A stretch of DNA of 64,000 nucleotides from Streptomyces sp. NBC_00483 (GTDB lineage: Bacteria > Actinomycetota > Actinomycetes > Streptomycetales > Streptomycetaceae), in assembly GCF_036013745.1 (NCBI RefSeq), contig NZ_CP107880.1, forward strand, positions 310,001 through 374,000. The letters are read 5' to 3'. The notes below the pieces were generated by a model. It was not told the origin of the DNA. It made no database searches and worked only from the letters and a program-made list of their open reading frames with translations. Shown piece by piece: positions 11,516 to 32,725 of the stretch; position 1 is the first letter of the stretch, and the number at the start of each line of letters is the position of its first letter. The translations under genes were made by a program, and so were the position numbers.

Positions 11516-11686
11516 GGACCGTCCGCGAGCGCCCAGGCCAACCGGTTGCCCCAGAACCACCCCCGTTTGTTCGCACCGCACAGACCGGACCAGACCGGAC
11601 CGGAGCACAGCGGGCTGAGACGAGCGTTTCAGTCGTCTGCAAGTCCGGCGTGGCATCGTCCTTACGTCGGCCGCGGAGGCCGGCGA

Positions 11687-11777
11687 GGAGAGATACCCAT
11701 AGCGGCCCAATGGGGGCCGGAACCCGTTTCCGGTCAGGGGTGCCAAGCCCCGCGCAGGTTCGAATCCTGCTCTCTCC
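11687..11777 (+). tRNA. Type II serine-like tRNA with a non-standard anticodon arm
   Basis: 91 nt that fold as a cloverleaf. The acceptor stem GGAGAGA/TCTCTCC is 7 of 7 bp. The D stem is CCCA/TGGG with a GG-containing loop. The long variable arm has stem GGGG/CCCC and a 7-nt loop. The T stem GCAGG/CCTGC is 5 of 5 bp with loop TTCGAAT. The discriminator base 11778 is G, as in tRNA-Ser (Leu has A). CCA is not encoded. The anticodon arm (11716-11734) is 19 nt instead of 17: GCCGG/CCGGT encloses AACCCGTTT, or, with one extra pair, the 7-nt loop ACCCGTT. That loop would give anticodon CCG with C at 33 and T at 37, against the universal U33 and purine 37. Decoding is therefore doubtful. It lies 55 bp before the kinase gene at the edge of the azoxy cluster. 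A role as a serine donor is inference. Confidence 0.7.
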
Positions 11778-11832
11778 GCTCAGCGCGGCGGCGGCCGATC
11801 CGATGCAGACGATGCGGACAAGGAAGCAGCGC

Positions 11833-12792
11833 ATGAGCCACTGGGCACGCAATGCGGTGATCGTGGCGAACGAACGGGCGGGGGGCGCCGTTTCGGTCCC
11901 GGTCGCGGATGTCGCTGAGGCGTGTCAGAGGCTCGTCGGAGAGGTCGGCGTGGTGCGGACCGCGTACCCCGGGCACGCCCGGACACTGGCCGCGAAGGCC
12001 GTACGGGACGGTGTGGACGCCGTGGTCGCGGTCGGCGGCGACGGCACCGTCGGCGAAGTGGCGGGCGGCATCGTGACAGCCGGGGAGGGCACGGAGGTCG
12101 TGGCGGCCCGGCCGGGGCTCGTCGGCCCGGCCCTGTTCTGCGTTCCGGCCGGCACCGGCAACTCTTTCTACAAAGAGGTCTGGCACGACCGGCCGTGGCG
12201 CGAGGCGCTCGCCGCCGCCTTCACGGGAGCGCGTCCGCGGCTTCGGCGGCTGGACCTGGCGCGCGTGGCGCAGACGCGGGACATCGTGCTGCTGGGCGCC
12301 TGCTCCGGTCTCGTCGCCGAGGCGCTGGAGACGGCGGCCGGGCTCACCAGGATCAGCGGTCGGGCCCGCTACCAGCAAGCGGTGGCCGCGACCCTGCGCG
12401 ACTTCGCGCCGCACCCGGCCAGGGTCGTGGTGGACGGCGAGGTGGTCCATGACGGCAGCGTGGTCCTCGCGGCCGTCGGTGGCGGCCGCTACCGGGGCGG
12501 CGGATTCCTCCTGCTGCCCCACTCCGTTCTGGACGACGCTCTGCTCGACGTCTGTGTGGTGACCGGCGATCTCGATCCTCTGGAGCTGCCCGGTCTCACC
12601 CGGGAGGGACGGCATCTCGAACGGCCCGAGGTGCTGTACCGGCGCGGTCGCCGCGTCGAGATCGAACGCACCGACGGCGCCCCCCTCACCTTCGAGTGGG
12701 ACGGCGAGGTCAAGCGCGGGCGCACGCGCTACGCGCTCGACATCCTTCCCGCGGCGCTGCCGGTGCTGGCCCCGACCGCCGAGTCCGTATGA
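11833..12792 (+). CDS. Diacylglycerol-kinase-like lipid/alcohol kinase (VlmJ-like role)
   Basis: 319 residues; ATG 11833 is preceded by AAGGAAG. It has the DAGK catalytic fold: VVAVGGDGTVGEVAGG (GGDGT at about 68-72), PAGTGNSF (about 105-112), and a C-terminal β-sandwich with VVDGEVVHDG and FEWDGEV. In valanimycin biosynthesis a DAGK-like enzyme, VlmJ, phosphorylates the serine-derived hydroxyl of the azoxy intermediate so that an MmgE/PrpD protein can eliminate phosphate. An MmgE/PrpD gene is present at the other end of this cluster. A house-keeping lipid kinase is the alternative. The open frame extends far upstream through the tRNA, but the conserved protein starts here. Confidence 0.8.
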   Translation: MSHWARNAVIVANERAGGAVSVPVADVAEACQRLVGEVGVVRTAYPGHARTLAAKAVRDGVDAVVAVGGDGTVGEVAGGIVTAGEGTEVVAARPGLVGPALFCVPAGTGNSFYKEVWHDRPWREALAAAFTGARPRLRRLDLARVAQTRDIVLLGACSGLVAEALETAAGLTRISGRARYQQAVAATLRDFAPHPARVVVDGEVVHDGSVVLAAVGGGRYRGGGFLLLPHSVLDDALLDVCVVTGDLDPLELPGLTREGRHLERPEVLYRRGRRVEIERTDGAPLTFEWDGEVKRGRTRYALDILPAALPVLAPTAESV

Positions 12793-12845
12793 CCGCAGGC
12801 CGGCCGCGGGTCGACAACCATCCGTACCACGCAAGGGACTTGCTC

Positions 12846-13964
12846 ATGAGTGATAGCGCCCATATCCCGAACACCGACACCGGCGCCGCCTGGTCGTTTC
12901 CGATGCAGGGGCGAAACACCTTCACCTGGGAGTACGACACGGATCGAGAGCGGCTGCTGAGCCTCTATCAGAAGGGCAAGGACAAGCAGTGGGACAGCAC
13001 GAAGCGGATCGACTGGTCCCTGGACGTGGACCCCTGTGATGTCCTCGGCACTCCGGAGAACGCCCTCGCGCTGTACGGCTCCCGGCAGTACTCCCGCCTG
13101 AACGGGCGGGAGAAGCAGGAGCTGCGAAGGCACATGGCAGCCTGGGAGTTCAGTCAGTTCCTGCACGGGGAGCAGGGCGCCATGATCTGCTCCGCCCGGA
13201 TCGTCGAGTCGGTGCCGGACATCGACTCCAAGTTCTATGCCGCGACCCAGGTCATGGACGAGGCGCGGCACGCGGAGCTGTTCACGCGCTTTGTGCGCGA
13301 CAAGATCGGCATGAGCTATCCGATCAGCCCGCATCTGAAGTCCCTGCTGGGCGAGGCTTTGAACGACTCCCGCTGGGACATGCCGTATCTGGGAATGCAG
13401 GTGCTCATCGAGGGCCTGGCCCTCGCGGCCTTCGGCATCCTGCGCGACCGTACGGACAAGCCGCTGCCCAAGCAGATTCTCTCCTACATCATGCAGGACG
13501 AGGCCCGGCACGTGGCCTTCGGGCGCATCGCGCTGCGGGACTACTACAAGGAGCTGACCAGCAAGGAGATCGCGGAACGCGAGGACTTCATCGTCGAGGG
13601 CTGCTATCTGATGCGCGATCGGCTGCGGATGCAGGAGGTGTGGGAGACGCTCGGCTTCGACATGAAGGAATGCATGGAGTACATGAACCGGGGCCCGCGC
13701 ATGCGTGCCTTCCGGTCACGGCTCTTCACCCGGATCGTGCCCTGCGTCAAGGACATCGGGCTGTGGGGGCCCAGGGTCCAGCAGGCATACGCGGACATGG
13801 GCGTGCTGGACATGGCGGACCGCGACCTGCTGAAGCTCATGGCGGCGGACGAGGCCCAGGCGGAGGCGCTGGACGCGGAGCGACACGAGCTCAAGGCGCG
13901 GCAGGGCGAGGTCCACCGCGCGATTGCGGAGGGGCGGCTCACCGCCGCCGGCGACGACGGCTGA
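12846..13964 (+). CDS. Ferritin-like diiron oxygenase (first of two)
   Basis: 372 residues from ATG 12846. The four-helix diiron ligand set is complete: Glu109 (HGEQGA), Glu139/His142 (MDEARH), Glu189 (LIEGLAL) and Glu219/His222 (QDEARH). This ExxH...ExxH arrangement is that of ferritin-like oxygenases such as the N-oxygenating family. In valanimycin the non-heme diiron enzyme VlmB oxidises the hydrazine to the azoxy group, and one of the two diiron proteins here is the candidate for that step. It is co-directional with the kinase, 53 bp downstream. It could instead hydroxylate or desaturate the chain. Confidence 0.8.
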   Translation: MSDSAHIPNTDTGAAWSFPMQGRNTFTWEYDTDRERLLSLYQKGKDKQWDSTKRIDWSLDVDPCDVLGTPENALALYGSRQYSRLNGREKQELRRHMAAWEFSQFLHGEQGAMICSARIVESVPDIDSKFYAATQVMDEARHAELFTRFVRDKIGMSYPISPHLKSLLGEALNDSRWDMPYLGMQVLIEGLALAAFGILRDRTDKPLPKQILSYIMQDEARHVAFGRIALRDYYKELTSKEIAEREDFIVEGCYLMRDRLRMQEVWETLGFDMKECMEYMNRGPRMRAFRSRLFTRIVPCVKDIGLWGPRVQQAYADMGVLDMADRDLLKLMAADEAQAEALDAERHELKARQGEVHRAIAEGRLTAAGDDG

Positions 13965-15591: not shown

Positions 15592-16629
15592 TCAAGCGGG
15601 GGTGAGGGCCGGCCAACGGAGGGTGCAGGCGCCCCAGGTGAGGCCGCCACCGAAGGCCGTGAGTACGGTGCGGTGACCGGGGGCCAGCGTGCCGGTGGCC
15701 ACGGCGTGCGCGAGGGCCAGTGGGATGGAGGCGGCCGCGGTGTTGCCGACCTGGTCGAGATGGACCGGGCAGCGGTGCCGCGGGAGCCGCATCCGGTCCG
15801 CCACCGCGTGCAGGATCCGTAGGTTGGCCTGGTGCGCGACGAGCCGGTCGATGTCGTCCGTGGTCCAGCCGGCCCGACGCGCCGCGGTCAGCGCGGCATC
15901 GGCCATGCGCTCCACGGCGCTGCGGAAGACGGCCTTGCCCGCCATCCGGAAGTACGGGTCCGCGGGACCACCCGTGCCGGTGTCCGCACCGGACGTACCC
16001 GACGTACCGAACGTGTGCAGCGGCTCGCGGGAGCCTCCCGAGCGGACGGTGATGAGCTCGCTGCCCGTGCCGTCACTTCCGAGCACCGCCGTGCCGAGCG
16101 CACCGGGCTCCGTCGCGCCACCGGACCGCAGCACCACCGCTCCGGCGCCGTCGCCGAAGATGGCACGCGTGGAGCGGTCGGCGGGGTCGAGGATGCGGGA
16201 GTACGTATCCGCGCCGATGACCAGCACGCTGCCCACCGTTCCCGCGGCGATCAGCCCGGCACCGGTGGCCAGGGCGTACAGGAATCCGGTGCAGACCGCG
16301 CCCACGTCGAAGGCGGCCACGGTGCCGAGGCCCAGCCGGGCCGCCACCAGCGGGGCGGTGGCCGGGCAAGGGTGGTCCGGGGTGGTGGTGGCAAGGACCA
16401 CCCCGTCCACGGCATCGCGGCCCGCGGATTTCAGCGCCCGCCGGCCCGCCTCCACCGCGAGATCGGAGGTGGCGACGGTCGGGGCGGCGACGAAGCGGGT
16501 CCCGATCCCGGTACGGCTGCGGATCCAGTCGTCGGACGTGTCCAGTTCCCTGGCCAGGTCGTCGTTGGTGACCGCCTGGGGCGGAAGCCAGGTGCCGAGG
16601 CCGCACAGCACCGCCGCCGCGGCGTTCAC
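15592..16629 (-). CDS. fabH-like: 3-Oxoacyl-ACP synthase III (KAS III)
   Basis: 345 residues; GTG 16629 overlaps the desaturase stop (GTGA). The FabH family is shown by Cys113 in DVGAVCTGFLYAL, the His in AHQANLRIL and the Asn in VGNTAAAS, completing the Cys-His-Asn triad, plus SRTGIGTR near the N-terminus. It would start chain building from an acyl-CoA. A dedicated KASIII suggests that the cluster chooses its own starter unit. Confidence 0.9.
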   Translation of the reverse strand: MNAAAAVLCGLGTWLPPQAVTNDDLARELDTSDDWIRSRTGIGTRFVAAPTVATSDLAVEAGRRALKSAGRDAVDGVVLATTTPDHPCPATAPLVAARLGLGTVAAFDVGAVCTGFLYALATGAGLIAAGTVGSVLVIGADTYSRILDPADRSTRAIFGDGAGAVVLRSGGATEPGALGTAVLGSDGTGSELITVRSGGSREPLHTFGTSGTSGADTGTGGPADPYFRMAGKAVFRSAVERMADAALTAARRAGWTTDDIDRLVAHQANLRILHAVADRMRLPRHRCPVHLDQVGNTAAASIPLALAHAVATGTLAPGHRTVLTAFGGGLTWGACTLRWPALTPA

Positions 16630-17705
16630 CGAGCTTCCCGGGGCGACGAGGCGCGGTCGGGACCGGCCGCGGCCCGGCTGACCGTACCGAGGTGGTCGGC
16701 GACCATGAGGTAGGAGCGCAGCAGCCGCTCCTCGGCGTACGGCAGGCCGCCACGCACCAGGTAGTCCTTCACCAGCGGCTGGGCGCGGCGCAGATTCCTG
16801 CGCGGCATGGACGGGAACAGGTGGTGCTCGATCTGGTAGTTGAGCCCGCCGTAGAAGAAGTCCGTGATCCGGTGGGGTGCCAGATTGCGCGAGGTGATCA
16901 CCTGCCGGGTGAGCCAGTCGAGTTCCTCCTCCGTACCGTCGCGTACGGGCTGGCCCTTGTGGTTGGGGGCGAAGAGCAGGCCCATGTAGAAGCCGAAGAG
17001 CGCCTGGTGGACGACGATGAAGGCCACGGCGAGGACCGCCGGGAGGACCATGAGGACCGCGGTCAGATAGGCCGCCAGATGGAGTGTCAGCAGGGCCAGG
17101 TCGAGGGCGACATGACGCTTCAGTGCGCCCTTGCGTGCCGCCACGTACCCGGAGGCGTGCAGGCGCAGTCCTTCCATGAGGATGAGCACGTAGAACATCC
17201 ACGCCTGGTGCCGCACGATGTACCGGCCGACGGCTCCGGTGCGTTTTGCGCTGTCCTTGGCGTCGAAGATCACCTGTCGGCGGAGGATGTCCGGGTCCAG
17301 CGAGAGGTGGTTGGGGTAGTTGTGGTGCTTGGTGTGGTGGGCGACCCACCAGCCGAAGCTCACGCCGGTGAGCAGATTGCCGTGGGTGTACCCGATCACC
17401 TCGCCGGCCCGCCGGGTCCGGAAGATCTGGCGGTGTCCCGCGTCGTGCCCGATGAGGTCGGTCTGGCCCCAGCACGCCGCGAGGAAGGCCGCCACGGCCA
17501 GTTGCCACCAGCTGTCGCCGAGCAACGCGAAGCAGGTCCAGCCGGCGGCGAGGAGCAACAGGTTCGCGGTGATCTTTAAGGCGTAGTAGCCGGGTTGGGA
17601 GTCCAGGAGGCCGGCTTCCCGCACCAGGCGGGTGATCTCCGGCATGTTCGGGGTGCCTTCCGGCGCCGCGGCCAGGGGGCGGGGGGTGCCGTCCAGGGAG
17701 CTCAT
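16626..17705 (-). CDS. Membrane fatty acyl desaturase
   Basis: 359 residues with four or so membrane helices. The three histidine boxes of non-heme diiron desaturases are present: HDAGH (87-91), HHTKHH (123-128) and QIEHH (about 311-315). It would place a cis double bond in the alkyl chain; alkenyl azoxy compounds are known from Streptomyces. Its ATG overlaps the stop of the upstream diiron gene (ATGA). Leu43 is encoded by the rare codon TTA (17577-17579), implying dependence on the bldA tRNA. Confidence 0.88.
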   Translation of the reverse strand: MSSLDGTPRPLAAAPEGTPNMPEITRLVREAGLLDSQPGYYALKITANLLLLAAGWTCFALLGDSWWQLAVAAFLAACWGQTDLIGHDAGHRQIFRTRRAGEVIGYTHGNLLTGVSFGWWVAHHTKHHNYPNHLSLDPDILRRQVIFDAKDSAKRTGAVGRYIVRHQAWMFYVLILMEGLRLHASGYVAARKGALKRHVALDLALLTLHLAAYLTAVLMVLPAVLAVAFIVVHQALFGFYMGLLFAPNHKGQPVRDGTEEELDWLTRQVITSRNLAPHRITDFFYGGLNYQIEHHLFPSMPRRNLRRAQPLVKDYLVRGGLPYAEERLLRSYLMVADHLGTVSRAAAGPDRASSPREAR

Positions 17706-18772
17706 ATCGCCTCCTGGAGACCCATGTGGGCCAGCCGCGTCCGCTGCAGGTGCGCGGCCCATGCGTGGGCGGTTTCGAGGCGTTCGCGCGCGGTGGTGTC
17801 CGCCAGGCGGCGGCCGGGCCAGATCTCGTAGTCGCCCAGGAGGTCGGCGTGCCGCTCGATGCCCTGCTGGAAGAGCTCCTCGCGGCGCGCCAGCATCTCG
17901 GTGGTCGGCAGCTTGTCCCACAGGGCGTAGCCCTCCTGGATCAACTCCAGGAGCCGCGCCTTGTCGTGCGGGTGTGCGCGGAGGTGGTCGCGGACGATGG
18001 TGCTGCCGACCGTGAGATGCCTGATCTCGTCGATGCCTGCGCCCCGCTCGATGTCGGCTGCCGCCGGGTCGAAGATCCGCCACTTGCGCTCGCTGAGCTC
18101 GGCGGCCGGCGCCAGCACGCCCTCGACCAGGACCGTCAGGACCAGTACGCCGCCGATGAAGTCGCGCTCGTCGCGCAGTACACGCAGCCCGAAGTCCTCC
18201 AGGGGGGCGAGGATCTGCTCCTCGTCGGCGGCCGCGAGGCGGGCCACGGTGGCCCGCAGCTCCGCACGGGACACGCCGAGGTCGAGCAGGTGGCTGCGGA
18301 AGACCATGGCGTGCCGGGCCTCGTCGAGCAGCTGGGTGGCGTAGAACTCCATGCTGTCGGTGTCGGGCGCGAGCGCCGTCAGATAGCCGATGGCCCGGGT
18401 GGCCTTCTCCTCTGCGATGGAGCGGTAGGCGAGCTCCTGGGTGAGTGCGCTGTTGAGCGGTCCTGCCGCACTGACCGCGGCCAGTGGCCGTACGTTCGCG
18501 TCGTGGCCCGAGACGTTGCCGCGCAAGGTGCCGTGCGGCACGGCGCTGAGCCAGTACCGCAAGTTGCAGACGGCCGGGGTGAGTTCGAGGCGTTCCGCGC
18601 CGTCCAGGAGCGAGGGAGCCGTGTTCCAGTCGGCCTCGGAGGGGATGGCCGCCGGTACGGTCCCCGGTGCCGGTGCCGGTGCCGTGGTCGGTGGCGTGGT
18701 CGGTGTCGTGGTCGGTGGCGTGGTCGGTGTCGTGGTCGGTGGCGTGGTCGGTGTCGTGGTCGGTGGCGTCAT
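17702..18772 (-). CDS. Ferritin-like diiron oxygenase (second) with a Thr/Pro-repeat head
   Basis: 356 residues; ATG 18772 overlaps the flavin reductase stop. Residues 1-36 are a low-complexity TTTPTTPP repeat. The diiron core follows, with ligands Glu121 or Glu122, Glu151/His154 (LDEARH), Glu217 (VLVEGVL) and Glu249/His252 (IDEIRH). It is only distantly like the diiron protein at 12846, so the pair probably catalyse different steps, one of them the VlmB-type four-electron oxidation to azoxy. It sits directly between the desaturase and the flavin reductase in a tightly coupled run. Confidence 0.8.
   Translation of the reverse strand: MTPPTTTPTTPPTTTPTTPPTTTPTTPPTTAPAPAPGTVPAAIPSEADWNTAPSLLDGAERLELTPAVCNLRYWLSAVPHGTLRGNVSGHDANVRPLAAVSAAGPLNSALTQELAYRSIAEEKATRAIGYLTALAPDTDSMEFYATQLLDEARHAMVFRSHLLDLGVSRAELRATVARLAAADEEQILAPLEDFGLRVLRDERDFIGGVLVLTVLVEGVLAPAAELSERKWRIFDPAAADIERGAGIDEIRHLTVGSTIVRDHLRAHPHDKARLLELIQEGYALWDKLPTTEMLARREELFQQGIERHADLLGDYEIWPGRRLADTTARERLETAHAWAAHLQRTRLAHMGLQEAI
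18684..18769. repeat. 24-bp tandem repeat inside the diiron gene
   Basis: 3.6 copies of GTGGTCGGTGGCGTGGTCGG+TGTC. The unit is in frame and encodes TTTPTTPP on the reverse strand. Copy number could vary without breaking the frame. Confidence 0.85.
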
Positions 18773-19353
18773 GAGGAATCCCTTTCGGTCTGTCGCGGGA
18801 CAGGGGTGGAGGTTCCGGGGGCGGAGGGGGCTACGGGGCCGGGGTGCAGGTCGTAGGCGAAGTTGACGAGCGGGGTGGCTCCGGTGTGGACCGCCGATAC
18901 GACCTGGGCGACCACCAGTTCGTGGTCGCTGAGCGGGATGGTGAGCTTCGGCCGGCACTCCAGCCACGCCACCGCTCCGCTGAGCCGGGGCACGTCGTCG
19001 CCCGGGTCGCCGAGCCAGGCGTCCGGCGGCAGTTGGCCCAGGCCGCGGGGCCGGCCGCGGCGGGCGAAGTGCCGGGCGAGGGGCTCCTGCGTCGCCGCCA
19101 GCGCATTGGCGACGAATACCGGGCTGTTGGCCAGGGCGCGCAGTCCCCGGCTGCCGCGGCGCAGCGCCACACAGGCCATCGGGGGGTCGCCGGGGACGGT
19201 GCTGAACGTGCTGACCGTGACCCCCTCGGCCGCCTCCCCCACCCCGCAGATGAGGACCGTCACGCCGGTGACGAAGTGGCGCATCGCGGTGAGGACGGCG
19301 GTGTCGCCGGCCGCGCGGGCCGTCGCGGAGGAGCGTCGGGTGGCTACGGCCAT
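18769..19353 (-). CDS. Flavin reductase (VlmR-like role)
   Basis: 194 residues of the flavin-reductase-like FMN-binding split-barrel family. It shows MRHFVTGVTVLI at the N-terminus, VTVSTFSTVPGDPPMACVAL, the FVANALAATQE stretch, and a HELVVAQVVSAVHTG segment. It would supply reduced flavin to the ACAD-type monooxygenase at 21662, as VlmR does for the N-hydroxylase VlmH in valanimycin. Its start overlaps the membrane-protein gene by 10 bp and its stop overlaps the diiron ATG. Confidence 0.85.
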   Translation of the reverse strand: MAVATRRSSATARAAGDTAVLTAMRHFVTGVTVLICGVGEAAEGVTVSTFSTVPGDPPMACVALRRGSRGLRALANSPVFVANALAATQEPLARHFARRGRPRGLGQLPPDAWLGDPGDDVPRLSGAVAWLECRPKLTIPLSDHELVVAQVVSAVHTGATPLVNFAYDLHPGPVAPSAPGTSTPVPRQTERDSS

Positions 19354-19838
19354 GGCAGCGGGCCCTGGCTCGTGGCGTCGCTGCCGGTGGCCACCGCGTC
19401 CGCCGCCGCGAACTCGCTGCGGAAGCGGCGGTACGCCTGGTGCGTGACGGGCTCGAAGCGCAGAGCGAACGGCTTGAGGTAGTTGCCGCACAGCGCCCTG
19501 TCGCCGCACAGATGGATGGGCAGCGCGAGCAGCGCCCACTCGAAGCCCCACAGCCAGATCCACCCCAGCGCCAGCAGCCCCTGCGTGACCATGGAGTGCA
19601 TGAGGTTGTAGGCGACGTAGTAGCCCTTGCCGACCCGGCCCTCGCGGCGCCGGTACCGGATGGCTCCTGGGAGGTATCCGATCAGATCGATATAGGCGAA
19701 GAGCACCAGGGCCGGCAGCCATCGCACCTGATCGAGGTGGACGAAGAACAAGACCGTGGCGACGACAAGCCCGAGCCCGTACTCCGCCCGTATCAGCCGC
19801 GCGGTCACCGGCGTCATGAACAGGTTCTTGGTGTCCAT
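19344..19838 (-). CDS. Small integral membrane protein (VlmO-like candidate)
   Basis: 164 residues with about four hydrophobic helices (YGLGLVVATVLFFVHLDQV; WLPALVLFAYIDLIGYLPG; NLMHSMVTQGLLALGWIWLW; ALLALPIHL) and a conserved-looking HLCGDRALCGNYLKPFALRF tail. In valanimycin the membrane protein VlmO rearranges the O-seryl hydroxylamine to an N-N bonded hydrazine. A membrane protein in the middle of an otherwise matching gene set is the natural candidate for that step here. I assign this by context and topology only, since I cannot compare the sequences. Confidence 0.6.
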   Translation of the reverse strand: MDTKNLFMTPVTARLIRAEYGLGLVVATVLFFVHLDQVRWLPALVLFAYIDLIGYLPGAIRYRRREGRVGKGYYVAYNLMHSMVTQGLLALGWIWLWGFEWALLALPIHLCGDRALCGNYLKPFALRFEPVTHQAYRRFRSEFAAADAVATGSDATSQGPLPWP

Positions 19839-20356
19839 CAGCCGGCCTGCCACGACTGGGCGGGAGCAAGCGACGCGGCCGGAGCGCCGCCCACGGTGCG
19901 GGCCAGCGCCCGGTCGCCGAGCACCGCGCCCGAGGGGAACAGGCCGAGCACCACCTGGGCGATGGTCTCCTTGAAGACCCGCTCGGCCACCGGCTCCAGG
20001 ATGCCCGCCAGGCTGGGGATGCCGAAGTCGAAGGCCGCGCGGAAGGCGACCCGTACCTCGCTGCCCTCTGCGGCGACCCGCCACGTGCCTTCGAACACCT
20101 CGAAGTCACCGTCGAGTTGGGTGAAGGTGATGGTGAGCGTCGGCCGGTCGAAGTGGTCGGACTCGGTCCAGCGCAGGATGCCGTTGCGGAAGTACACCTC
20201 CCAGGCGCTGGTCTCCTCCGTCTCGCTGAGGTCGTGGACGGTGACCGACAGGACCACCGGGGTGAGTTCGGGATAGCGGGCGAATTCCGCGACCCGGTCG
20301 TACACCGCTTCCGCGGCGATACCGGGGACGCCGATGGTCACATCAACGCTGCGCAT
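19838..20356 (-). CDS. SRPBCC/START-fold protein (cyclase-like)
   Basis: 172 residues; ATG 20356, stop overlapping the next start as TGATG. The pattern MRSVDVTIGVPGIAAEAVYD, RVAEFARYPELTP and TWRVAAEGSEVRVAFRAAFD is that of polyketide cyclase/CoQ-binding SRPBCC proteins, which bind hydrophobic ligands in a deep cavity. There is no aromatic polyketide machinery here, so ligand binding, thioester hydrolysis or presentation of the lipid intermediate are likelier roles than cyclisation. Confidence 0.75.
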   Translation of the reverse strand: MRSVDVTIGVPGIAAEAVYDRVAEFARYPELTPVVLSVTVHDLSETEETSAWEVYFRNGILRWTESDHFDRPTLTITFTQLDGDFEVFEGTWRVAAEGSEVRVAFRAAFDFGIPSLAGILEPVAERVFKETIAQVVLGLFPSGAVLGDRALARTVGGAPAASLAPAQSWQAG

Positions 20357-21653
20357 GGGCGACGCCACCTTCGTGAGTCTGGATGTCGGGGACATAGCGG
20401 GCTGCCTGCACGCGGCAGGCACGTTCGAACGCCGCGAGGAGGAACTGCACCTCCGACGGGCCGAGGACGGCGGGCGGGGTGAAGCGCAGCACCAGGTGGG
20501 AGTTGAGCGAATGGTTCGCCACCACGCCCTGCCGGATCAGCTCGACCAGCAGGTCGCCGGCCGGACCCGGCTCGGCGAACTCGACGCCGATGAGCAGCCC
20601 CCGGCCGCGCACCTCCCGTACGAGATCGCCGAAGCACTCCCGCGCGATCCGGTCGATCCCGGCCAGGAGTACGCGGCCCAGCTCGCGGGCGCGGGTCACC
20701 AGGTCCTCCTCTTCGATGGCCCGCAGCGCGCCACGCACGGCGGCCATCGCCAGCGGCATGCCGGAGAAGGTGGAGGTGTGCAGATACGGGTCCCGGTCGA
20801 AGGCGCCGAACACGTCCGCCGCCGCGATGACCGCAGAGACAGGCATGATGCCGCCGCCAAGACCCTTGCCGGCCAGCAGCAGGTCCGGGGTGAGCCCTTC
20901 CTCGTCCGCTCCCCACCAGGAGCCGAGACGGCCGAGTCCGGTCTGGATCTCGTCCAGGACGAAGAGCGCGTCATGGGCGCGGCACAGCTCCTGGACCGTG
21001 CGCAGATAGCCGGGTGGCGGCAGCACCACGCCCGCCTCGCCCTGGACCGGCTCGATCACCACGCAGGCGCGGCCGGATGCCGCATCGAGCCGCTCGGCCA
21101 GCGCTTCGGCGTCGCCGTACGGTACATGGCAGGTGCCGGGGAGCAGGGGGCGGAACGGGTCCTTGAACAGGTCCTTGCCGGTGAGGCTGAGCGCGCCCAT
21201 GGTCTTGCCGTGGTAGCCGCCGTGCGTGGCGATGAGCCGGTCCTTGCCCCGGGTGCGGGCGATCTTGATGGCGGTCTCCACGGCCTCCGCGCCGGAGCAC
21301 GCGAAGTGCACCCGGTCGAGACCCGCCGGCGCCTTGGCCACCAGCGCGTCGGCGGCCAGCGCCGCCTGGGGTTCGAGAAGGACGCGGGTGGCCACCGGGT
21401 TGCGGTGCAGCTGCTCGGTGACATGGGCTACGACGACGGGGTGCCGGGCGCCCATCAGGAGGACGCCGTAGCCGCCGCAGTTGAGCAGCCGCCGTCCGGT
21501 CGCGGTGGTCACCCAGGCGCCCTGCGACTCCATCTCCAGCTCGCCGCCGAGGAGTTCGCCGAGGGTGGCGCGGCCCTTGCTCAGGCGGGTCCGGTACAGC
21601 CGGCCGATCTCTTCGCGGCCCGGCGGCTGCGCGGGCGTGACGGTCGTGGTCAT
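20343..21653 (-). CDS. Class III aminotransferase (PLP)
   Basis: 436 residues from ATG 21653 (AGGAG four bases upstream); ATG 21665, overlapping the preceding stop, would add four residues. Fold-type I class III motifs are CSGAEAVETAIKIAR, the Asp in FVLDEIQTGLGR and the PLP lysine in LLLAGKGLGGGIMP (about residue 270). It is most like ornithine/acetylornithine-type ω-aminotransferases. In this cluster it would convert a fatty aldehyde to the primary amine that is then N-hydroxylated, replacing the valine decarboxylase used for isobutylamine in valanimycin. That role is inference. Confidence 0.85.
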   Translation of the reverse strand: MTTTVTPAQPPGREEIGRLYRTRLSKGRATLGELLGGELEMESQGAWVTTATGRRLLNCGGYGVLLMGARHPVVVAHVTEQLHRNPVATRVLLEPQAALAADALVAKAPAGLDRVHFACSGAEAVETAIKIARTRGKDRLIATHGGYHGKTMGALSLTGKDLFKDPFRPLLPGTCHVPYGDAEALAERLDAASGRACVVIEPVQGEAGVVLPPPGYLRTVQELCRAHDALFVLDEIQTGLGRLGSWWGADEEGLTPDLLLAGKGLGGGIMPVSAVIAAADVFGAFDRDPYLHTSTFSGMPLAMAAVRGALRAIEEEDLVTRARELGRVLLAGIDRIARECFGDLVREVRGRGLLIGVEFAEPGPAGDLLVELIRQGVVANHSLNSHLVLRFTPPAVLGPSEVQFLLAAFERACRVQAARYVPDIQTHEGGVAHAQR

Positions 21654-21661
21654 GGCGCTCC

Positions 21662-22798
21662 TCATGCCAGTCGTAGTGGATGGCCGGCGGCGTGCTCGAG
21701 CCAGGGGTCGGCGAAGCTGGAGCGGGACGGCGGGTGGAAGGACAGGCCGTGCGAGGCGGCCGCCAGGGTGGCGATGTCGGGCGAGCCGATGAAGGCCATC
21801 CCGCCGAGCAGCTCCACGGCGCGGGCCACGACCTCACGGATCAGGTCCTGCGCGGCGTAGCGCGCGACCAGGGCCCGGGCGAGTCCCTCGTCGCCCACCG
21901 CCTTGTCCTCGATCATGCGGGCGGTGCCCTCGGTGAGCAGCGTCGCCGTCTCGCAGCGGGTGAGCAGCTCGGCCCGTTCGGTGTTCGTGCCGCGGCCGCT
22001 GGTCAGGACGCGTTCGACCAGGGCGCCGGCCATTCCGGCGTAAGAGGCGGTGATGAGCAGTTCGAACCAGATGAGGCCGATGGTCTGGAGCTCGTCCAGC
22101 TCGCCCGCCGCGCCGGTCTCGGTGCGCATCAACTGCTGCTCGTCGACGAAGACTTCGTGCAACCGCACCTCGTCGCTCTCCGCGCCGGCCAGTGCCCAGC
22201 TCGACCAGAACGGCTCCACGGTCAGCCCCTCCGCCTGCCGCGGTACGAGCACCACCGCCAAGTCGCTGGTGCCGTCCGCGTTCGGCAGCGCGGCGCTCGC
22301 GGTGAGCAGGTCCATGGAGCGGGAGAGGCTGCAGGGCTTCTTCGACCCGCTGATGCGGTAGCCCTTTCCGTCCGGCCGTGCCAGGACCGTGGGGCTGAGG
22401 ATGCCTCGGCCGGGGCGTCCCTCGGCGAATCCCGAGGCGACCAGGAGCCTTTGTTCGACGATCCCTTCCAGCAGCGCCCACTCGACGCCGTCGCTCTGCG
22501 GGCTGTCGGCGAGCGCGAACAGGGTGGCCACGGAGAAGTGGTGCATGGTGGTGGCCACCGCGAGGGACGGGGCGACGGCGGCCAGCGCCCTGGTGACGTC
22601 CACGGCCTGCAGCGGCGTGGCGCCGCTTCCCGAGTAGGTCCGGGGAATGACGAGACCTGGACCGCCGTGCGCGCGAAAGAGGCCGATGGCCGGGCTGCCC
22701 GGCCGCTCCAGATCGGTCAGCGGAATTTCGTCGAGTGCGGCCAGCAGGCCGGGCAGGAACTCCTCGCAGGTGCGGCGAGCGGTGTTCATCGAGCGCAT
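21662..22798 (-). CDS. ACAD-fold flavoprotein, probable amine N-hydroxylase (VlmH-like role)
   Basis: 378 residues; ATG 22798 has AAGGAG 8 bp upstream (ATG 22789, overlapping the ALDH stop, is an alternative). It is an acyl-CoA dehydrogenase-fold protein: a helical N-terminal domain, a β-domain around SGFAEGRPGRGILSPTV and KGYRISGSKKPCSLS, and a helical C-terminus with VELLGGMAFIGSPDI. The SGxK start of the β-domain and the partner flavin reductase point to the two-component monooxygenase branch (DszC/VlmH) rather than a true dehydrogenase. The likely reaction is O2-dependent oxidation of the alkylamine to a hydroxylamine. Confidence 0.75.
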   Translation of the reverse strand: MRSMNTARRTCEEFLPGLLAALDEIPLTDLERPGSPAIGLFRAHGGPGLVIPRTYSGSGATPLQAVDVTRALAAVAPSLAVATTMHHFSVATLFALADSPQSDGVEWALLEGIVEQRLLVASGFAEGRPGRGILSPTVLARPDGKGYRISGSKKPCSLSRSMDLLTASAALPNADGTSDLAVVLVPRQAEGLTVEPFWSSWALAGAESDEVRLHEVFVDEQQLMRTETGAAGELDELQTIGLIWFELLITASYAGMAGALVERVLTSGRGTNTERAELLTRCETATLLTEGTARMIEDKAVGDEGLARALVARYAAQDLIREVVARAVELLGGMAFIGSPDIATLAAASHGLSFHPPSRSSFADPWLEHAAGHPLRLA

Positions 22799-24459
22799 GG
22801 CGTCGTCTCCTTGTGGGCATCCGGCTGCGAGCGGCTGCCGTTGCCGAGGCGCTCGTCGATCAGGTTCTGCCAGGCGCCGAAGACCGCGTCCCGGGGCCGA
22901 GAACCCGGGCTGATGCTCACGCCCTGGAGGTGCGAGGTCCGCAGGATCGGGTAGTTGGCCTCGCCAAAGACGCCTCCGGTCAGCCCGGTGCCGCCGTGTG
23001 TGGGCATATACGGCAGGAAGCCGATGTGCGAGTCGTTCACCTTGAACAGGCCGCCGGTGTGGACGCGGGCGATGAACTCGTCGATGACGGCCGGGTCCTT
23101 GGCCCACAGCGAGTTGCGCAAGCCGTAGCGGTTGGAGTTCACGAATCCGATGAAGGTGGCCATCAACTCGGTGTCCGGCGCGGAGTCGGCGACGATCACG
23201 GGAAGCAGCGGAAAGAACGTCTCGTGCCGCACGGCGTGGAGCTCGCGTGCACCTTCGACGCCGCGCACCAGAATCACGGTCGGCTCCAGGAAAATGCCGC
23301 CCGGGTCGCGGACTTCGTCGAGCTGCATCGGGTGGCCGCCGCAGACCACCTTGGCGCCCTTGTCGCGGGCGTCCTTCAAGCAGCTGAAGAACTTCTCGTT
23401 GCGCAGCACCGGCGTCAGCAGCACGTCGGGTTCCCATGGGTAGCCCGGCCGGATGTGGCCGATCTGCCGTACCAGGGACGCCACGAGCGCGTCCGCGACA
23501 TCGGGGTGCACCAGCACCTGGTTGGGAATCATGCACAGCTGCCCGGAGCCGTAGAAGCTCTCGGTGAGGGCCTCGGCCGCGAGGTCGATGTCGGCGTCTT
23601 TCCATACGGTGACGACGTCGTTGCCCGCCAGTTCCAGGATCGGCTTCTTACCCGCGGCGATGCAGCGTGCCTCGAACTTCAACCCCGCGTCGCTGCTGCC
23701 GAAATAGATGATGTCGTTCACCGCGGGATGCGCCAGCCAGCAGCTCAGCATCGGCGCCGGATCGCCGCAGACGACGTTCAGCGTGCCCGGCGGAGCGCCG
23801 CACTCCGCGAGGACGGGGGCCACGATCTCCTGCATGACGTACATGACGCCCAGCGGCGCGCTGCGCGGGGCCCGCACCACCAGCGCATTGCCGGCCATCA
23901 GCGCCGTCACGCCGAGAAGGGCGCTGGACAGGGGCGCGTTCTGCGGGGGGTTGAGACAGACCACACCGTCGGGCTGCCGACGCACCTGGAGGCGACGCTC
24001 GCCTCGATGGAACTCCTGCAGCATCTGGGACCGGTAGAAACTCACCGACTCCGGGCCGAAGCACTCCAGCATGCCGGAGACCTGCCACCGCGCCAGTGCC
24101 AGGGGGTGCCCTTCCTCGACCAGGACGGCGGCGATGTCCTCGGCGTGGTCGGCGAGGCGGGCGTGCAGCATGCGGCCCACGGTCTCCATGCGGATGTGCG
24201 GCGAAACGGCGCTCCAGGCGGGGGCGGCCGCGGCCGCGGCTTCGACGGCGCGCTGGACCGTGGCGCGATCGGCCTTCGCGACGCGTCCGACGACGGTCGA
24301 CGGGAGGTCGTGCGGTGGAATGCGACCCTGTTCCAGTTTCCGTTTGAGTGCCAGGCTCGCGAAGACGTCGTCCAGCAAGGAATCGGCGCTGAGTACGTAG
24401 ACCCATTCCTCGCTGGGCAGGTGTTGCCCGTTTACGTAGGACGAATAGTTTCGGTACAT
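22786..24459 (-). CDS. Aldehyde dehydrogenase-family enzyme
   Basis: 557 residues, longer than the usual 480-500. ALDH motifs are NPPQNAPLSSALLGVTALMA in the cofactor fold, the Glu in ILELAGND and the catalytic Cys in YGSGQLCMIPNQ. A C-terminal THGGTGLTGG follows. No ribosome-binding site clearly fixes the start; ATG 24459 begins the conserved part. First gene of the long reverse operon. Direction in vivo is open. It may reduce an activated fatty acid to the aldehyde needed by the aminotransferase, as CoA-acylating ALDH relatives do, or simply oxidise aldehydes. Confidence 0.8.
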   Translation of the reverse strand: MYRNYSSYVNGQHLPSEEWVYVLSADSLLDDVFASLALKRKLEQGRIPPHDLPSTVVGRVAKADRATVQRAVEAAAAAAPAWSAVSPHIRMETVGRMLHARLADHAEDIAAVLVEEGHPLALARWQVSGMLECFGPESVSFYRSQMLQEFHRGERRLQVRRQPDGVVCLNPPQNAPLSSALLGVTALMAGNALVVRAPRSAPLGVMYVMQEIVAPVLAECGAPPGTLNVVCGDPAPMLSCWLAHPAVNDIIYFGSSDAGLKFEARCIAAGKKPILELAGNDVVTVWKDADIDLAAEALTESFYGSGQLCMIPNQVLVHPDVADALVASLVRQIGHIRPGYPWEPDVLLTPVLRNEKFFSCLKDARDKGAKVVCGGHPMQLDEVRDPGGIFLEPTVILVRGVEGARELHAVRHETFFPLLPVIVADSAPDTELMATFIGFVNSNRYGLRNSLWAKDPAVIDEFIARVHTGGLFKVNDSHIGFLPYMPTHGGTGLTGGVFGEANYPILRTSHLQGVSISPGSRPRDAVFGAWQNLIDERLGNGSRSQPDAHKETTPCAR

Positions 24460-24589
24460 GCTGGCGAGCATGGCAAGGGTCACTGAAATCCAGCTGAGAA
24501 TCCACTGAGACCGCGACGTCAGCCAACTCCGGTGACCTTCGGATAAGTTGACCCAAAATAGCGTCCGCCTGATGGAGGGTGTGCGACAA
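24460..24589. promoter_or_regulatory. Divergent promoter region, lipid/N-oxidation operon and tRNA-dependent transferase
   Basis: 130 bp between the two start codons, visibly AT-richer than the flanks (AAGTTGACCCAAAATAGCG around 24544-24562). It is the only break in an otherwise dense block and the best place for SARP binding; no repeats could be assigned with confidence. Confidence 0.5.
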
Positions 24590-25609
24590 ATGAGCCGACT
24601 GCCGAACATATTGCAAGAGCGCGCAGAGGACCCCGAGACGACGGAGCTGGCGCTGACTGCCGTTCAGAAGTACGCGGACAACCCCAGCGCATTTCTGGCA
24701 ATGAACGTCGGCAACAAGATGTTCATCGGCGACGGAGGCACACTCGTCGCCTACCGGGAGGCGGGGCGCTTCTTCGTCCAGTTCGGCGGCGTATTCGGGC
24801 CTCCGGGGCAACAGGCGGCGGCACTCCAGGATTTCAAGGAATATGCGCGTGCGCGAAAACGCCTGATCGTCAGTATTCAACTGCAGCGCGCCGACGCTGC
24901 ATTATATGCGGCTGCGGGGTTCGTCCTCAATCAGGTGGGGGCCTCCTACGCGGTCCGGCTGCCCGAATTCACGCTGCGCGGCACACGGTTCATGAAGCTG
25001 CGTAACAAGATCTCGCGGGCCAGGCGTGACGGACTTGACGTCCAGGAGGTCTCGTTCGCGGAACACCAGGACAGTGTCGAGCGGATCGACGAGGCGTGGC
25101 TGCGCGGGAAGGGCAGGCACGTCAAGGAGATCGAGTTCCTGGTCGGGGAGACCGGCGGGCCGGTGCAGCGGCATCGGCGGTTGTTCCTGGGGACGCTCGA
25201 CGGCAGGCCGCTGGCCTATATTTCCTACGCTCCCGCGTTCGGATCCCGCCCCGGCTGGCTGCACGATCTCAGCCGGCGTCTGCCGGAATCCGGGCCCGGG
25301 GTGATGGAGGCCATCAACGCCACCGCCCTGGAGACGTTCACGCGTGAGCACGCCGAGTGGCTGCACTTCGGGTTCACGCCCTTCACCGGCCTGGACGCGG
25401 CGCATGAACTGACGCCGAGCAGCGCCCTGACGGGAAAGCTCCTGCGATTCCTCGCGGAAAAGGGGGAGCACGTCTACCCGGCTGCCAGTCAGCTCGCGTA
25501 CAAGAGCAAGTGGGGTCCGCAGTTGGTACTGCCCGAGTATCTGGCCTTCGAGGGTGGCGCCAGTCTGCGCGCCGTATGGTGCATCCTCCGGCTGACCAAG
25601 TCCATCTGA
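24590..25609 (+). CDS. MprF/DUF2156-type aminoacyl-tRNA-dependent transferase (VlmA-like role)
   Basis: 339 residues from ATG 24590 (GGAGGG about 10 bp upstream). The tandem GNAT-like fold of the MprF C-terminal domain shows in VAYREAGRFFVQFGGVFGPP, KLRNKISRARRDGLDVQEV, LGTLDGRPLAYISYAPAFGS, GWLHDLSRRLPESGPGVMEA and the ending YKSKWGPQLVLPEYLAFEGG. Such enzymes take an amino acid from charged tRNA. In valanimycin, VlmA moves serine from seryl-tRNA to a hydroxylamine; I place it in this family from memory. No membrane helices are present, so it acts on a soluble acceptor, not on lipids in situ. Leu105 is a TTA codon (24902-24904). The odd tRNA at 11687 is a possible co-substrate. Confidence 0.75.
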   Translation: MSRLPNILQERAEDPETTELALTAVQKYADNPSAFLAMNVGNKMFIGDGGTLVAYREAGRFFVQFGGVFGPPGQQAAALQDFKEYARARKRLIVSIQLQRADAALYAAAGFVLNQVGASYAVRLPEFTLRGTRFMKLRNKISRARRDGLDVQEVSFAEHQDSVERIDEAWLRGKGRHVKEIEFLVGETGGPVQRHRRLFLGTLDGRPLAYISYAPAFGSRPGWLHDLSRRLPESGPGVMEAINATALETFTREHAEWLHFGFTPFTGLDAAHELTPSSALTGKLLRFLAEKGEHVYPAASQLAYKSKWGPQLVLPEYLAFEGGASLRAVWCILRLTKSI

Positions 25610-25635: not shown

Positions 25636-26406
25636 TCAAGCACCGCGCAGCAGAGCCCCCTCCTGATGAAGGATCTGCCTGAACCTCCGTCGCATTCCCG
25701 GGCCCGGCTCGATCCCCAGTTCCGCGTCCAGGTTGTGCTGGACCCTGCGGTAGGCACTGAGGGCGTCCGCCTGCCTGCCGGAGTGGTACAGGGCAGTCAT
25801 GAGCTGTTCGCAGAAGCGCTCGCGCAAGGGGTGCTGGGTCAGCAACTGCTCGAGTTCCGGGATCACTTGCCAGTACCTGCCGAGCCTCAGGTGCGCCTCG
25901 ACGAACAACTCCCGGCCCATCAACCTGGTTTCCTCGAGCCGGGTATATGCGATGCGGCAGATCAAGCCGTCCCCTGTATCGATAAGGGCCGGCCCCCGCC
26001 ATTCGGAGAACGCATCGGCGAGCAGCTTGATGGCGAGTTCGCAATCTGCGTTCAGGCGTCGACCGGCCGCCTCCACGGCATGCGAGAAGCGCAACGCGTC
26101 GACGTCCGCCGGGTCGACATCGAGTAGATATCCGGAGCGGGTCGTACGGATGACATGACGGGCTTTTTGCTTGCCGGTCTGTTCGGTGAGGACACGGCGC
26201 AACCGTGCGACATGTGATTGCAGGGAGTTGTCCGCGGTTTTCGGAGGTTGATCTCCCCAGAGTTCGTCAAGCAGATCAAGTGCCGGTACCGGCGTGCCAG
26301 GTGTGAGAGCCAGTGCCGCCATAATCGTTCTGAGCTTCTCTCCCGGCAGCTGGATGGGAATGTCTTCCTCGATCACATGGAGCGGCCCAAGTAGCCTTAC
26401 CTGCAT
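25636..26406 (-). CDS. SARP-family pathway activator
   Basis: 256 residues from ATG 26406, a typical small SARP. It has a winged-helix OmpR-like N-terminal domain (MQVRLLGPLHV, GEKLRTIMAALALTPGTPV, TADNSLQSHVARLRRVL). A bacterial transcriptional activation domain follows, to about residue 250 (CELAIKLLADAFSEWRGPAL; LREHRFCEQ-like ...LRERFCEQLMTALYHSGRQA). SARPs bind direct heptamer repeats before biosynthetic operons and recruit RNA polymerase. The valanimycin cluster also uses a SARP (VlmI). The longer upstream frame lacks homology and is not included. The gene converges on the transferase with a 26-bp gap. Confidence 0.88.
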   Translation of the reverse strand: MQVRLLGPLHVIEEDIPIQLPGEKLRTIMAALALTPGTPVPALDLLDELWGDQPPKTADNSLQSHVARLRRVLTEQTGKQKARHVIRTTRSGYLLDVDPADVDALRFSHAVEAAGRRLNADCELAIKLLADAFSEWRGPALIDTGDGLICRIAYTRLEETRLMGRELFVEAHLRLGRYWQVIPELEQLLTQHPLRERFCEQLMTALYHSGRQADALSAYRRVQHNLDAELGIEPGPGMRRRFRQILHQEGALLRGA

Positions 26407-26571
26407 GCGAACCCCCGGTTTTTTGCCACGTGAGAAGTGACTGACGTGTGTTCTCGACCATACTTCGTAGTGCGGGCGCACCCGGATTGGTATGGGACAC
26501 ACTTCGGTTCGGTCCGATAGGGCTGCGGTCGGGCCGGTGGGTTCGAATACTGGGCTTGAACTCATGAAGCC
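26407..26571. promoter_or_regulatory. SARP upstream region
   Basis: 165 bp between the SGNH-like stop and the SARP start. It is AT-richer (CCCCGGTTTTTTGCCACG, ACTTCGTAGTGCGG) and probably holds the SARP promoter on the reverse strand. Confidence 0.4.
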
Positions 26572-32344: not shown

Positions 32345-32725
32345 GACCGGCTCCAGGACAGGCCGCGCCGCGGATGTGTCGTGCGGGTGAGGTAGCAGGC
32401 GACCGTGTCGACGTCGTCGTGACTCAGGAAGCTGTGTCGGTCTGTCCCGGCCGTTTTGTACACACCTCGCTCCTTCCGAGAGCTGGGAACGCACCGGCGG
32501 TGCGACGGAGTGCTGTCTCATCGTTCAGGCCCCGGGTGGTAGCGCCCTGAAATTCCGCTGACACGGACAGCTCAGGCCCACTCCTGCCGGCGAGACCGAC
32601 ACTGCCTGGGACACGGCACCGCGTGATGGCGCTTTTCCGCCAGCGGGCACGGACACCGGATGCCACCGTCGATGACGTCGTCGTCGACGACGACCAGGGC
32701 ACCGGGCTCAGGAGGGGATGGGGAC
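32345..32725. promoter_or_regulatory. Divergent promoter region, MmgE/PrpD operon and SGNH gene
   Basis: About 380 bp without a credible gene; the frames inside lack coding bias. It must contain the promoters of the two divergent units. It includes GACGACGTCGTCGTCGACGACG, a GAC/GTC-rich palindromic run near 32673-32695. Confidence 0.5.

What the first reader, a model, noticed from the sequence alone, without database searches (positions are those of the whole stretch)
11687..11777. A serine-type tRNA with a non-decoding anticodon arm beside a seryl-transfer gene cluster
Seen: perfect acceptor (7 bp), T (5 bp), D (4 bp) and long variable (4 bp) stems and G73, the SerRS identity set. The anticodon arm is 19 nt rather than 17, the loop reads AACCCGTTT (or ACCCGTT), and U33 and purine 37 are missing. 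Known: SerRS reads the variable arm and discriminator and not the anticodon, so such an RNA could still be charged with serine. Inference: it is a pathway tRNA that supplies serine to the DUF2156/MprF-type transferase at 24590 without entering translation. The intact stems argue against a decaying pseudogene. I know of no described biosynthetic cluster with its own anticodon-defective tRNA-Ser.
Basis: partly seen in the sequence, partly recalled or inferred. Interest (0 to 1): 0.95.

Follow-up and report, generated by a model that had tools for sequence, protein, structure and literature searches.

The report
An anticodon-less tRNA for azoxy biosynthesis
A Streptomyces gene cluster that resembles those for azoxy antibiotics carries a serine-type tRNA with a sealed hairpin where the anticodon should be, dozens of related clusters carry one too, and it is predicted to hand serine to antibiotic assembly instead of to the ribosome.

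Summary
The 92-nt RNA at 11687-11778 (+) has an intact tRNA-Ser body (7-bp acceptor, D arm, long variable arm, T arm, G73), but its anticodon arm is a closed hairpin. Of 83 distinct full-length relatives, 82-83 keep each body stem whole and all 83 fold the anticodon region into a hairpin with a 3-7-nt loop. In 392 Streptomyces genomes the RNA occurs in 51 of the 82 that encode a VlmA-type (seryl-tRNA-using) transferase and in 0 of the other 310. On the VlmA tree it marks one clade (51 of 54 rows; 0 of 29 outside). 67 of 76 promoters carry SARP-type 11-bp repeats. A SerRS gene lies in the stretch around VlmA in 20 of 51 RNA-bearing loci and 0 of 32 others. All 83 have A51-U63, a weak-EF-Tu pair; nine ordinary tRNA-Ser have G51-C63. 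Best reading: a dedicated, SerRS-charged, ribosome-excluded serine carrier for azoxy biosynthesis. Charging and transfer are untested. Three loci of that VlmA clade lack it, so it is not strictly required. Searches of an open-access paper library found no description of it.

The parts
11687..11778 (+). anticodon-less tRNA-Ser-like RNA (whole, to discriminator G73)
   Evidence: model R1 86.7 bits; single copy in own genome
11687..11693 (+). acceptor stem 5' strand GGAGAGA (pairs with 11771-11777)
   Evidence: in 84 distinct copies pairs 1-6 never vary and pair 7 covaries (GC 76, AU 7, unpaired 1)
11696..11714 (+). D arm, 4 bp, with A14, G18, G19
11715..11735 (+). replacement of the anticodon arm: 8-bp hairpin (26-44 pair included) with 5-nt loop CCCGU at 11723-11727
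   Evidence: 83 of 83 family members fold here as a hairpin
11737..11751 (+). long variable arm, 5 bp
11754..11770 (+). T arm GCAGG-TTCGAAT-CCTGC with A51-U63
11616..11632 (+). possible degenerate SARP-type site upstream of the RNA (single TTTCAG; the perfect 11-bp repeat of most relatives is lacking here)
11833..12792 (+). YegS/DAGK-family kinase, VlmJ-like
   Evidence: Pfam DAGK_cat and YegS_C
12696..13964 (+). AurF-family di-iron N-oxygenase-like protein (start uncertain)
   Evidence: Pfam AurF
15592..17508 (-). ORF with ketoacyl-ACP synthase III (true start further in)
17702..18967 (-). VlmB-like protein (start uncertain)
   Evidence: 45-53% identical to genes annotated VlmB-like in six plasmid clusters (annotations)
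18769..20109 (-). ORF with flavin reductase, VlmR-like (true start further in)
20343..21665 (-). class-III aminotransferase
21662..23605 (-). ORF with acyl-CoA-dehydrogenase-like hydroxylase, VlmH-like (true start further in)
22786..24609 (-). ORF with aldehyde dehydrogenase (start uncertain, probably further in)
24483..24510 (-). three SARP-type repeats TYTCAG at 11-bp spacing, upstream of the aldehyde dehydrogenase on its strand
24590..25609 (+). VlmA-type aminoacyl-tRNA-dependent transferase (DUF2156, LPG_synthase_C)
   Evidence: Pfam LPG_synthase_C 1.7e-57
25636..26565 (-). SARP-family activator (BTAD)
30773..32521 (-). MmgE/PrpD-family protein, VlmK-like
32547..32563 (-). SARP-type repeat before the MmgE/PrpD gene

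Best explanation
The window encodes a tRNA-Ser-shaped RNA with a closed hairpin in place of the anticodon loop, one of a family that, among 392 Streptomyces genomes, was found only where a VlmA-type transferase is encoded, and it is predicted to be charged with serine by SerRS and to give that serine to VlmA instead of to the ribosome. Shown: the structure, its conservation, the absence of a decoding loop, the co-occurrence with one VlmA clade, and the SARP-type repeats before most copies. Inferred: SerRS can charge it, because serine identity lies in the long variable arm, acceptor stem and G73 and not in the anticodon. Without an anticodon and with a weak EF-Tu pair (A51-U63) the charged RNA would escape translation. 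VlmA would then transfer the seryl group to a hydroxylamine made by the VlmH/VlmR-like enzymes, giving the azoxy core, which the DAGK-like and MmgE/PrpD-like proteins would phosphorylate and dehydrate as VlmJ/VlmK do. The nearly invariant acceptor stem GGAGAGR may be what VlmA reads to tell it from the cell's own Ser-tRNAs. The RNA would be a trans-acting carrier that secures a private serine supply for the pathway.
For: Structure: of 83 distinct full-length copies (one truncated copy dropped), G1-C72, G2-C71, A3-U70, U8 and G73 are in 83, T stem 5/5 in 83, acceptor 7/7 in 82, D stem 4/4 in 82. 83 of 83 fold the middle into exactly two hairpins, mean z -2.9 against shuffles. Body stems covary and arm stems covary in 8 close members. 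2 of 83 contain a 5-bp/7-nt U33-R37 look-alike, both out of register; 4 of 4 own tRNA-Ser pass the same test. Association: RNA in 51 of 82 VlmA genomes and 0 of 310 others, p about 1e-42, genomes not independent; the two other hits are ordinary tRNA-Ser(GGA); at least one copy in every one of the 51 was found as a match and read or refolded from fetched DNA. 43 of 51 have a copy within 40 kb of VlmA on one contig, 24 within 2 kb. 32 of 33 genomes behind the VlmA loci have it, some shared with the 392; the miss is an acidobacterial MAG. Three further clear class-level members, one in another family, also have VlmA. VlmA tree: 51 of 54 rows in one 99/99 clade, 0 of 29 outside. serS in the VlmA stretch of 20 of 51 RNA+ and 0 of 32 RNA- loci. 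TCAG-N7-TCAG upstream of 67 of 76 copies against 0.25 expected and of 13 of 13 further dispersed copies. A51-U63 in 83 of 83, G51-C63 in 9 of 9 ordinary tRNA-Ser. Passages: serine identity independent of the anticodon (PMC9976931); VlmA uses Ser-tRNA and how it is diverted from translation is unknown (PMC4052509).
Against: No charging, expression or product data. Three VlmA loci inside the RNA clade (G073, G086, G337) lack the RNA. Two of them have DAGK and MmgE genes, and there SARP-type repeats stand about 65-125 bases before the DAGK match with no RNA between, so it is not strictly required. 29 other VlmA rows never have it, so VlmA enzymes as a class work without it. The window holds no SerRS gene; the genome has two elsewhere. 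The window copy lacks the perfect SARP repeat. Many dispersed copies in some genomes have no cluster gene beside them. A51-U63 also occurs in 4 of 41 tRNAs scanned in this genome (two Arg, Ile, Tyr), so it alone does not bar EF-Tu. The 392-genome search used Infernal's stricter filters, which can lose weak matches.
Confidence: 0.82

Rival explanations
1. The RNA is a regulatory element: a cis-acting leader of the downstream kinase gene, or a tRNA decoy that senses serine charging and controls the cluster.
For: In the window it lies 54 nt upstream of the DAGK-like gene on the same strand, and several relatives have it just before a DAGK-like gene.
Against: In many relatives it is divergent from VlmA with repeats of its own. 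It occurs in tandem and in dispersed copies, and 20 of 77 downstream stretches hold strong hairpins (z below -2) that could be terminators. In four genomes the site beside VlmA has SARP-type repeats but no RNA, while intact copies lie elsewhere (in G146 the VlmA stretch is cut by a contig end), which suits a trans-acting RNA. Serine identity features are all kept.
Confidence: 0.08
2. It is charged and supplies an amino acid, but its partner is another enzyme of the cluster, or the amino acid is not serine.
For: VlmA enzymes outside the clade work without it. The published azodyrecin pathway is proposed to use Ala-tRNA from the cell's pool (PMC9379638, passages).
Against: G73 with a long variable arm and G1-C72/G2-C71 fit serine; serS was found in the VlmA stretch only of RNA-bearing loci; the RNA is within 2 kb of VlmA in 24 of 51 genomes.
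Confidence: 0.06
3. It is a decaying tRNA-Ser pseudogene or a mobile tRNA-derived repeat with no function.
For: The anticodon is lost; some genomes have up to 11 copies, mostly dispersed; Rfam's tRNA model does not call it.
Against: Body nearly invariant with compensatory changes, hairpins kept in 83 of 83 although their sequences diverge, SARP-type repeats in 67 of 76, none in 310 genomes without VlmA.
Confidence: 0.03

Closest known systems
Valanimycin (vlm) pathway: VlmA with SerRS VlmL and SARP VlmI (azoxy biosynthesis)
   Same: VlmA/H/R/B/J/K-like genes and a SARP; VlmA is reported to transfer serine from Ser-tRNA (passages in PMC4052509, PMC12945691, PMC9379638).
   Different: No dedicated tRNA is mentioned in the passages read; here a private anticodon-less RNA is encoded. 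A valanimycin-like plasmid cluster (L177) holds two copies, with serS in the same cluster.
Non-proteinogenic tRNA-Gly of Staphylococcus (FemXAB cell-wall synthesis)
   Same: A tRNA set aside for a non-ribosomal transferase, with A51-U63 weakening EF-Tu binding (PMC4052509, passage).
   Different: Those keep an anticodon (recalled) and change G18-G19; here G18-G19 is kept in 82 of 83, the decoding loop is gone, and the gene belongs to natural-product clusters.
tRNA-Sec
   Same: Long variable arm, G73, charged by SerRS (PMC9976931, passage); sub-threshold Rfam hit.
   Different: tRNA-Sec has a 6-bp D stem (PMC7609411, passage), a longer acceptor domain and a decoding UCA anticodon (both recalled); here 4-bp D stem, 7-bp acceptor, no anticodon.
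tmRNA
   Same: A charged tRNA-like RNA without an anticodon (starts of the abstracts of PMC3985003 and PMC2481249 in the listing).
   Different: tmRNA works on the ribosome and carries an mRNA part; this RNA has a full tRNA body and no tag part.
Canonical tRNA-Ser
   Same: Cloverleaf body, variable arm, G73, serine identity pairs.
   Different: No decoding loop in register in 83 of 83; A51-U63 instead of G51-C63.

Membership tests
Canonical tRNA (Rfam RF00005) | Match over the family's gathering score | tested here: not met
   No match in the window nor in 14 loci that hold relatives, while 66 places of the genome match
Canonical tRNA-Ser | Serine identity: long variable arm, G73, G1-C72, G2-C71 | tested here: met
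   83 of 83 copies; identity set from PMC9976931, passages
Canonical tRNA-Ser | 7-nt anticodon loop with U33 and purine 37 | tested here: not met
   Absent in the window; 2 of 83 copies have a look-alike out of register; 4 of 4 own tRNA-Ser pass
Canonical tRNA-Ser | Charged by SerRS | not testable with these tools
   Inferred from identity elements only
tRNA-Sec (RF01852) | Gathering score, 6-bp D stem, UCA anticodon | tested here: not met
   33.8 bits against 47; 4-bp D stem, no anticodon
Non-translational tRNA donors (staphylococcal tRNA-Gly type) | Weak EF-Tu T-stem pair (A51-U63) | tested here: met
   83 of 83 copies, 0 of 9 ordinary tRNA-Ser; EF-Tu binding itself not tested
Non-translational tRNA donors (staphylococcal tRNA-Gly type) | Replacement of G18-G19 | tested here: not met
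   GG kept in 82 of 83 copies
Non-translational tRNA donors (staphylococcal tRNA-Gly type) | Used by a non-ribosomal transferase | not testable with these tools
   Genome association with VlmA only
Aliphatic azoxy (valanimycin-type) gene cluster | VlmA and VlmH homologues close together, with VlmB and VlmR | tested here: met
Aliphatic azoxy (valanimycin-type) gene cluster | Makes an azoxy compound | not testable with these tools
   No product data
tRNA pseudogene | Relaxed constraint on stems | tested here: not met
   Stems kept with compensatory changes

The most novel reading that the evidence does not exclude
Streptomycetes have evolved a second, private kind of seryl-tRNA: an anticodon-free aminoacyl carrier RNA, the RNA counterpart of a carrier protein, born once with a clade of VlmA transferases, switched on with the antibiotic cluster by its SARP activator and charged by a SerRS that is often in the same cluster. 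It answers how Ser-tRNA is drawn off from translation into azoxy biosynthesis.
Probability: 0.75. Interest if true: 0.97.

Novelty: categorically new. Interest (0 to 1): 0.95.

Why it matters
A tRNA-shaped gene family that cannot decode, encoded in natural-product clusters and apparently co-regulated with them, would be a class of tRNA outside translation. [quoted passage not shown] this gives a concrete and testable answer. It also gives a DNA signature for finding one clade of azoxy-type clusters, explains tRNA calls with meaningless anticodons in Streptomyces sequences, and would offer an orthogonal serine-accepting RNA for engineering.

Tried and rejected
Rejected: (1) chance or artefact: the RNA recurs with the same body in 51 of 392 genomes. 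(2) Pseudogene: stems kept with compensatory changes. (3) Ordinary tRNA-Arg as ARAGORN names it: that anticodon lies in a hairpin. (4) tRNA-Sec. (5) The ARAGORN hit in L049 (612-710) does not align with the family and was dropped; the true copy of that genome lies further out. (6) In the class search 88 of 296 genomes had a match. Four (own, G687, G549, G686) are clear members. The other 84 score 57-66 bits at about 85 nt, which overlaps the weakest family members in score; the six of them that I checked (L244-L249) are ordinary tRNA-Ser(GGA), as are the hits in G112 and G202. The other 78 were not checked one by one, and VlmA was not searched in that class set apart from those genomes. (7) A common neighbour gene for the dispersed copies: none found. 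(8) A hidden RNA in the three exceptional loci: none found. Paper searches for prior description (listings with starts of abstracts) found none; the library is open-access only, and Garg 2008 is not held.

Full report
WHAT IS THERE. No anticodon loop can form. The RNA is unique in its genome, is not called by Rfam's tRNA model and reaches 33.8 bits against tRNA-Sec (cut-off 47).

THE CLUSTER. Around it lie homologues of the valanimycin-type azoxy pathway: DAGK-like (VlmJ), AurF-like, ketosynthase III, VlmB-like, flavin reductase (VlmR), aminotransferase, acyl-CoA-dehydrogenase-like hydroxylase (VlmH), aldehyde dehydrogenase, the DUF2156/LPG_synthase_C transferase (VlmA), a SARP activator and MmgE/PrpD (VlmK). 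The assignments to vlm names rest on Pfam families and annotated plasmid clusters, not on the vlm sequences themselves. VlmA is described as using Ser-tRNA (passages in PMC9379638, PMC12945691, PMC4052509). The genome has two SerRS genes, neither in the window.

A FAMILY. Scanning a collection of one genome per species for relatives of the window's VlmA gave 34 loci. ARAGORN made tRNA calls in eight of them, most with odd anticodons. Seven align with the window RNA as one family; the eighth (L049) was a chance hit. A covariance model from these eight sequences (R1) found members in 10 of the 34 loci, which reach only 10 kb out. Searching the whole genomes behind those loci gave 32 of 33 (one locus not held, the miss an acidobacterial MAG). 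The genome's own tRNA-Ser score 41-61 bits with R1, family members in Streptomyces 62.6-112.8 (one truncated copy 54.4).

STRUCTURE ACROSS THE FAMILY. From 69 chosen sources came 93 copies, 84 distinct, one truncated copy dropped. G1-C72, G2-C71, A3-U70 and G73 are in 83 of 83, the T stem is whole in 83, acceptor and D stems in 82 each. The sequences of the anticodon and variable regions diverge widely, yet 83 of 83 fold as two hairpins; the first has 6-9 pairs (4 in two copies) and a loop of 3-7 nt. Body stems show 18 double-change cells against 1.4 in shuffles. So the shape of a blocked anticodon arm is kept while its sequence is free. The acceptor stem is nearly invariant, whereas the four ordinary tRNA-Ser of the genome differ among themselves. 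Rfam calls none of 14 further loci with members.

CO-OCCURRENCE. In the same 392 Streptomyces genomes R1 hits 53 (E <= 1e-8, stricter filters) and VlmA 82 (E <= 1e-30). Two of the 53 are ordinary tRNA-Ser(GGA); the other 51 all have VlmA. So 51 of 82 against 0 of 310; the genomes are related, so the p of about 1e-42 is only a guide. I did not read all 146 copies, but each of the 51 genomes has at least one copy in DNA that I fetched (window; matched or read). The 32 VlmA loci of the 31 RNA-less genomes show no R1 hit above 20.3 bits. A VlmA tree of 83 rows places all 51 RNA bearers in one clade of 54 (support 99/99), with 29 RNA-less rows on the other side. The label needs two changes, against 25.7 in shuffles, though near-copies also cluster. 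At class level three more genomes carry clear members, all with VlmA; one is in another family, with three tandem copies about 1 kb from a serS gene and VlmA 24.5 kb away on the same contig. In 'plasmids', 13 records have VlmA; of the 8 read, 6 of 6 Streptomyces clusters have the RNA and 0 of 2 others.

SERINE. A serS gene lies in the fetched VlmA stretch of 20 of 51 RNA+ and 0 of 32 RNA- loci; DAGK 11 of 51 and 2 of 32, MmgE 13 of 51 and 2 of 32. The stretches differ in length (3-64 kb), so these are lower bounds. Serine identity is independent of the anticodon (PMC9976931, passages).

REGULATION. 67 of 76 non-redundant upstream regions (tandem followers, duplicates and short stretches dropped) hold TCAG-N7-TCAG, against 0.25 in shuffles. 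The same repeats precede VlmH, DAGK or aldehyde dehydrogenase genes in the same clusters. SARP sites are direct heptamers, classically in 11-bp units, and VlmI sites lie before vlmJ and vlmA-vlmH (PMC10972967, passages). Binding of a SARP here is inferred. The window copy and eight others lack the perfect repeat.

AWAY FROM THE RIBOSOME. Besides having no anticodon, all 83 copies have A51-U63, named as a weak EF-Tu pair for staphylococcal non-proteinogenic tRNA-Gly (PMC4052509, passage). Nine ordinary tRNA-Ser have G51-C63. Four of 41 distinct tRNAs scanned in the own genome (two Arg, Ile, Tyr; a part of its tRNAs) also have A51-U63, so this is suggestive only.

TRANS-ACTING. Twelve of 51 genomes have four or more copies, up to 11. 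In those genomes most copies that I fetched lie far from VlmA, yet carry the same promoter type. In four of the twelve (G033, G117, G146, G302) the fetched VlmA stretch holds no copy (in G146 it is cut by a contig end), yet SARP-type repeats pointing away from VlmA remain there, read by eye. The 13 copies read from three of these genomes are intact and 13 of 13 have the repeat. This speaks against a cis-acting leader.

AGAINST. Three loci of the RNA clade have none. In two of these SARP-type repeats stand about 65-125 bases before the DAGK match with nothing tRNA-like between. No biochemistry exists. Only the open-access library was searched for prior art.

VERDICT. A dedicated, anticodon-less seryl carrier RNA of azoxy-type clusters is the best-supported reading. 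Structure, family, association and promoter repeats are shown; charging, escape from EF-Tu, SARP control and transfer by VlmA are inferred.

Noticed in passing
G365, G327, G003, G388, G033, G282 (loci L133-L148): 8 to 11 copies of the RNA per genome, mostly dispersed, with different arms but the same body and promoter type and no shared neighbour gene found; dosage or transposition is unexplained.
   Followed up: partly
L227, L229, L231, L236 (G302, G117, G146, G033): SARP-type repeats remain opposite VlmA but no RNA follows, while intact copies lie elsewhere in the genome.
   Followed up: yes
L186, L209, L212 (G073, G337, G086): VlmA loci of the RNA clade without the RNA; in L186 and L212 the SARP-type repeats stand directly before the DAGK gene.
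   Followed up: partly
29 VlmA rows outside the RNA clade: A large VlmA group has neither the RNA nor serS in the fetched stretches; it may use another aminoacyl-tRNA, perhaps alanyl as proposed for azodyrecin.
   Followed up: no
G549 (C1:3849352 and C1:6744659): One genome with two VlmA genes, one beside the RNA and a second one elsewhere, 58% identical to the window's.
   Followed up: no
G000:C1:4852844-4853164: The window's genome has a second SerRS-like gene (613-aa frame) outside the cluster.
   Followed up: no
L173, L174, L175, L176, L177: Locus-tag numbers skip exactly where the RNA lies, which suggests that NCBI annotates an RNA gene there that PLSDB's table omits.
   Followed up: no
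L174:3730-6039, L175:3753-6047: A class I tRNA-ligase-family protein is encoded in azoxy-type plasmid clusters besides serS.
   Followed up: no
G000:C1:4476252, 4469234, 5170614: 17-18-nt exact T-arm matches with no tRNA gene called around them; possibly attachment-site remnants of tRNA-targeting elements.
   Followed up: no
window 11725-11778 (-): The sub-threshold Rfam match to Plastid-psbl-rps4 on the minus strand is the antisense of the T arm and acceptor.
   Followed up: yes
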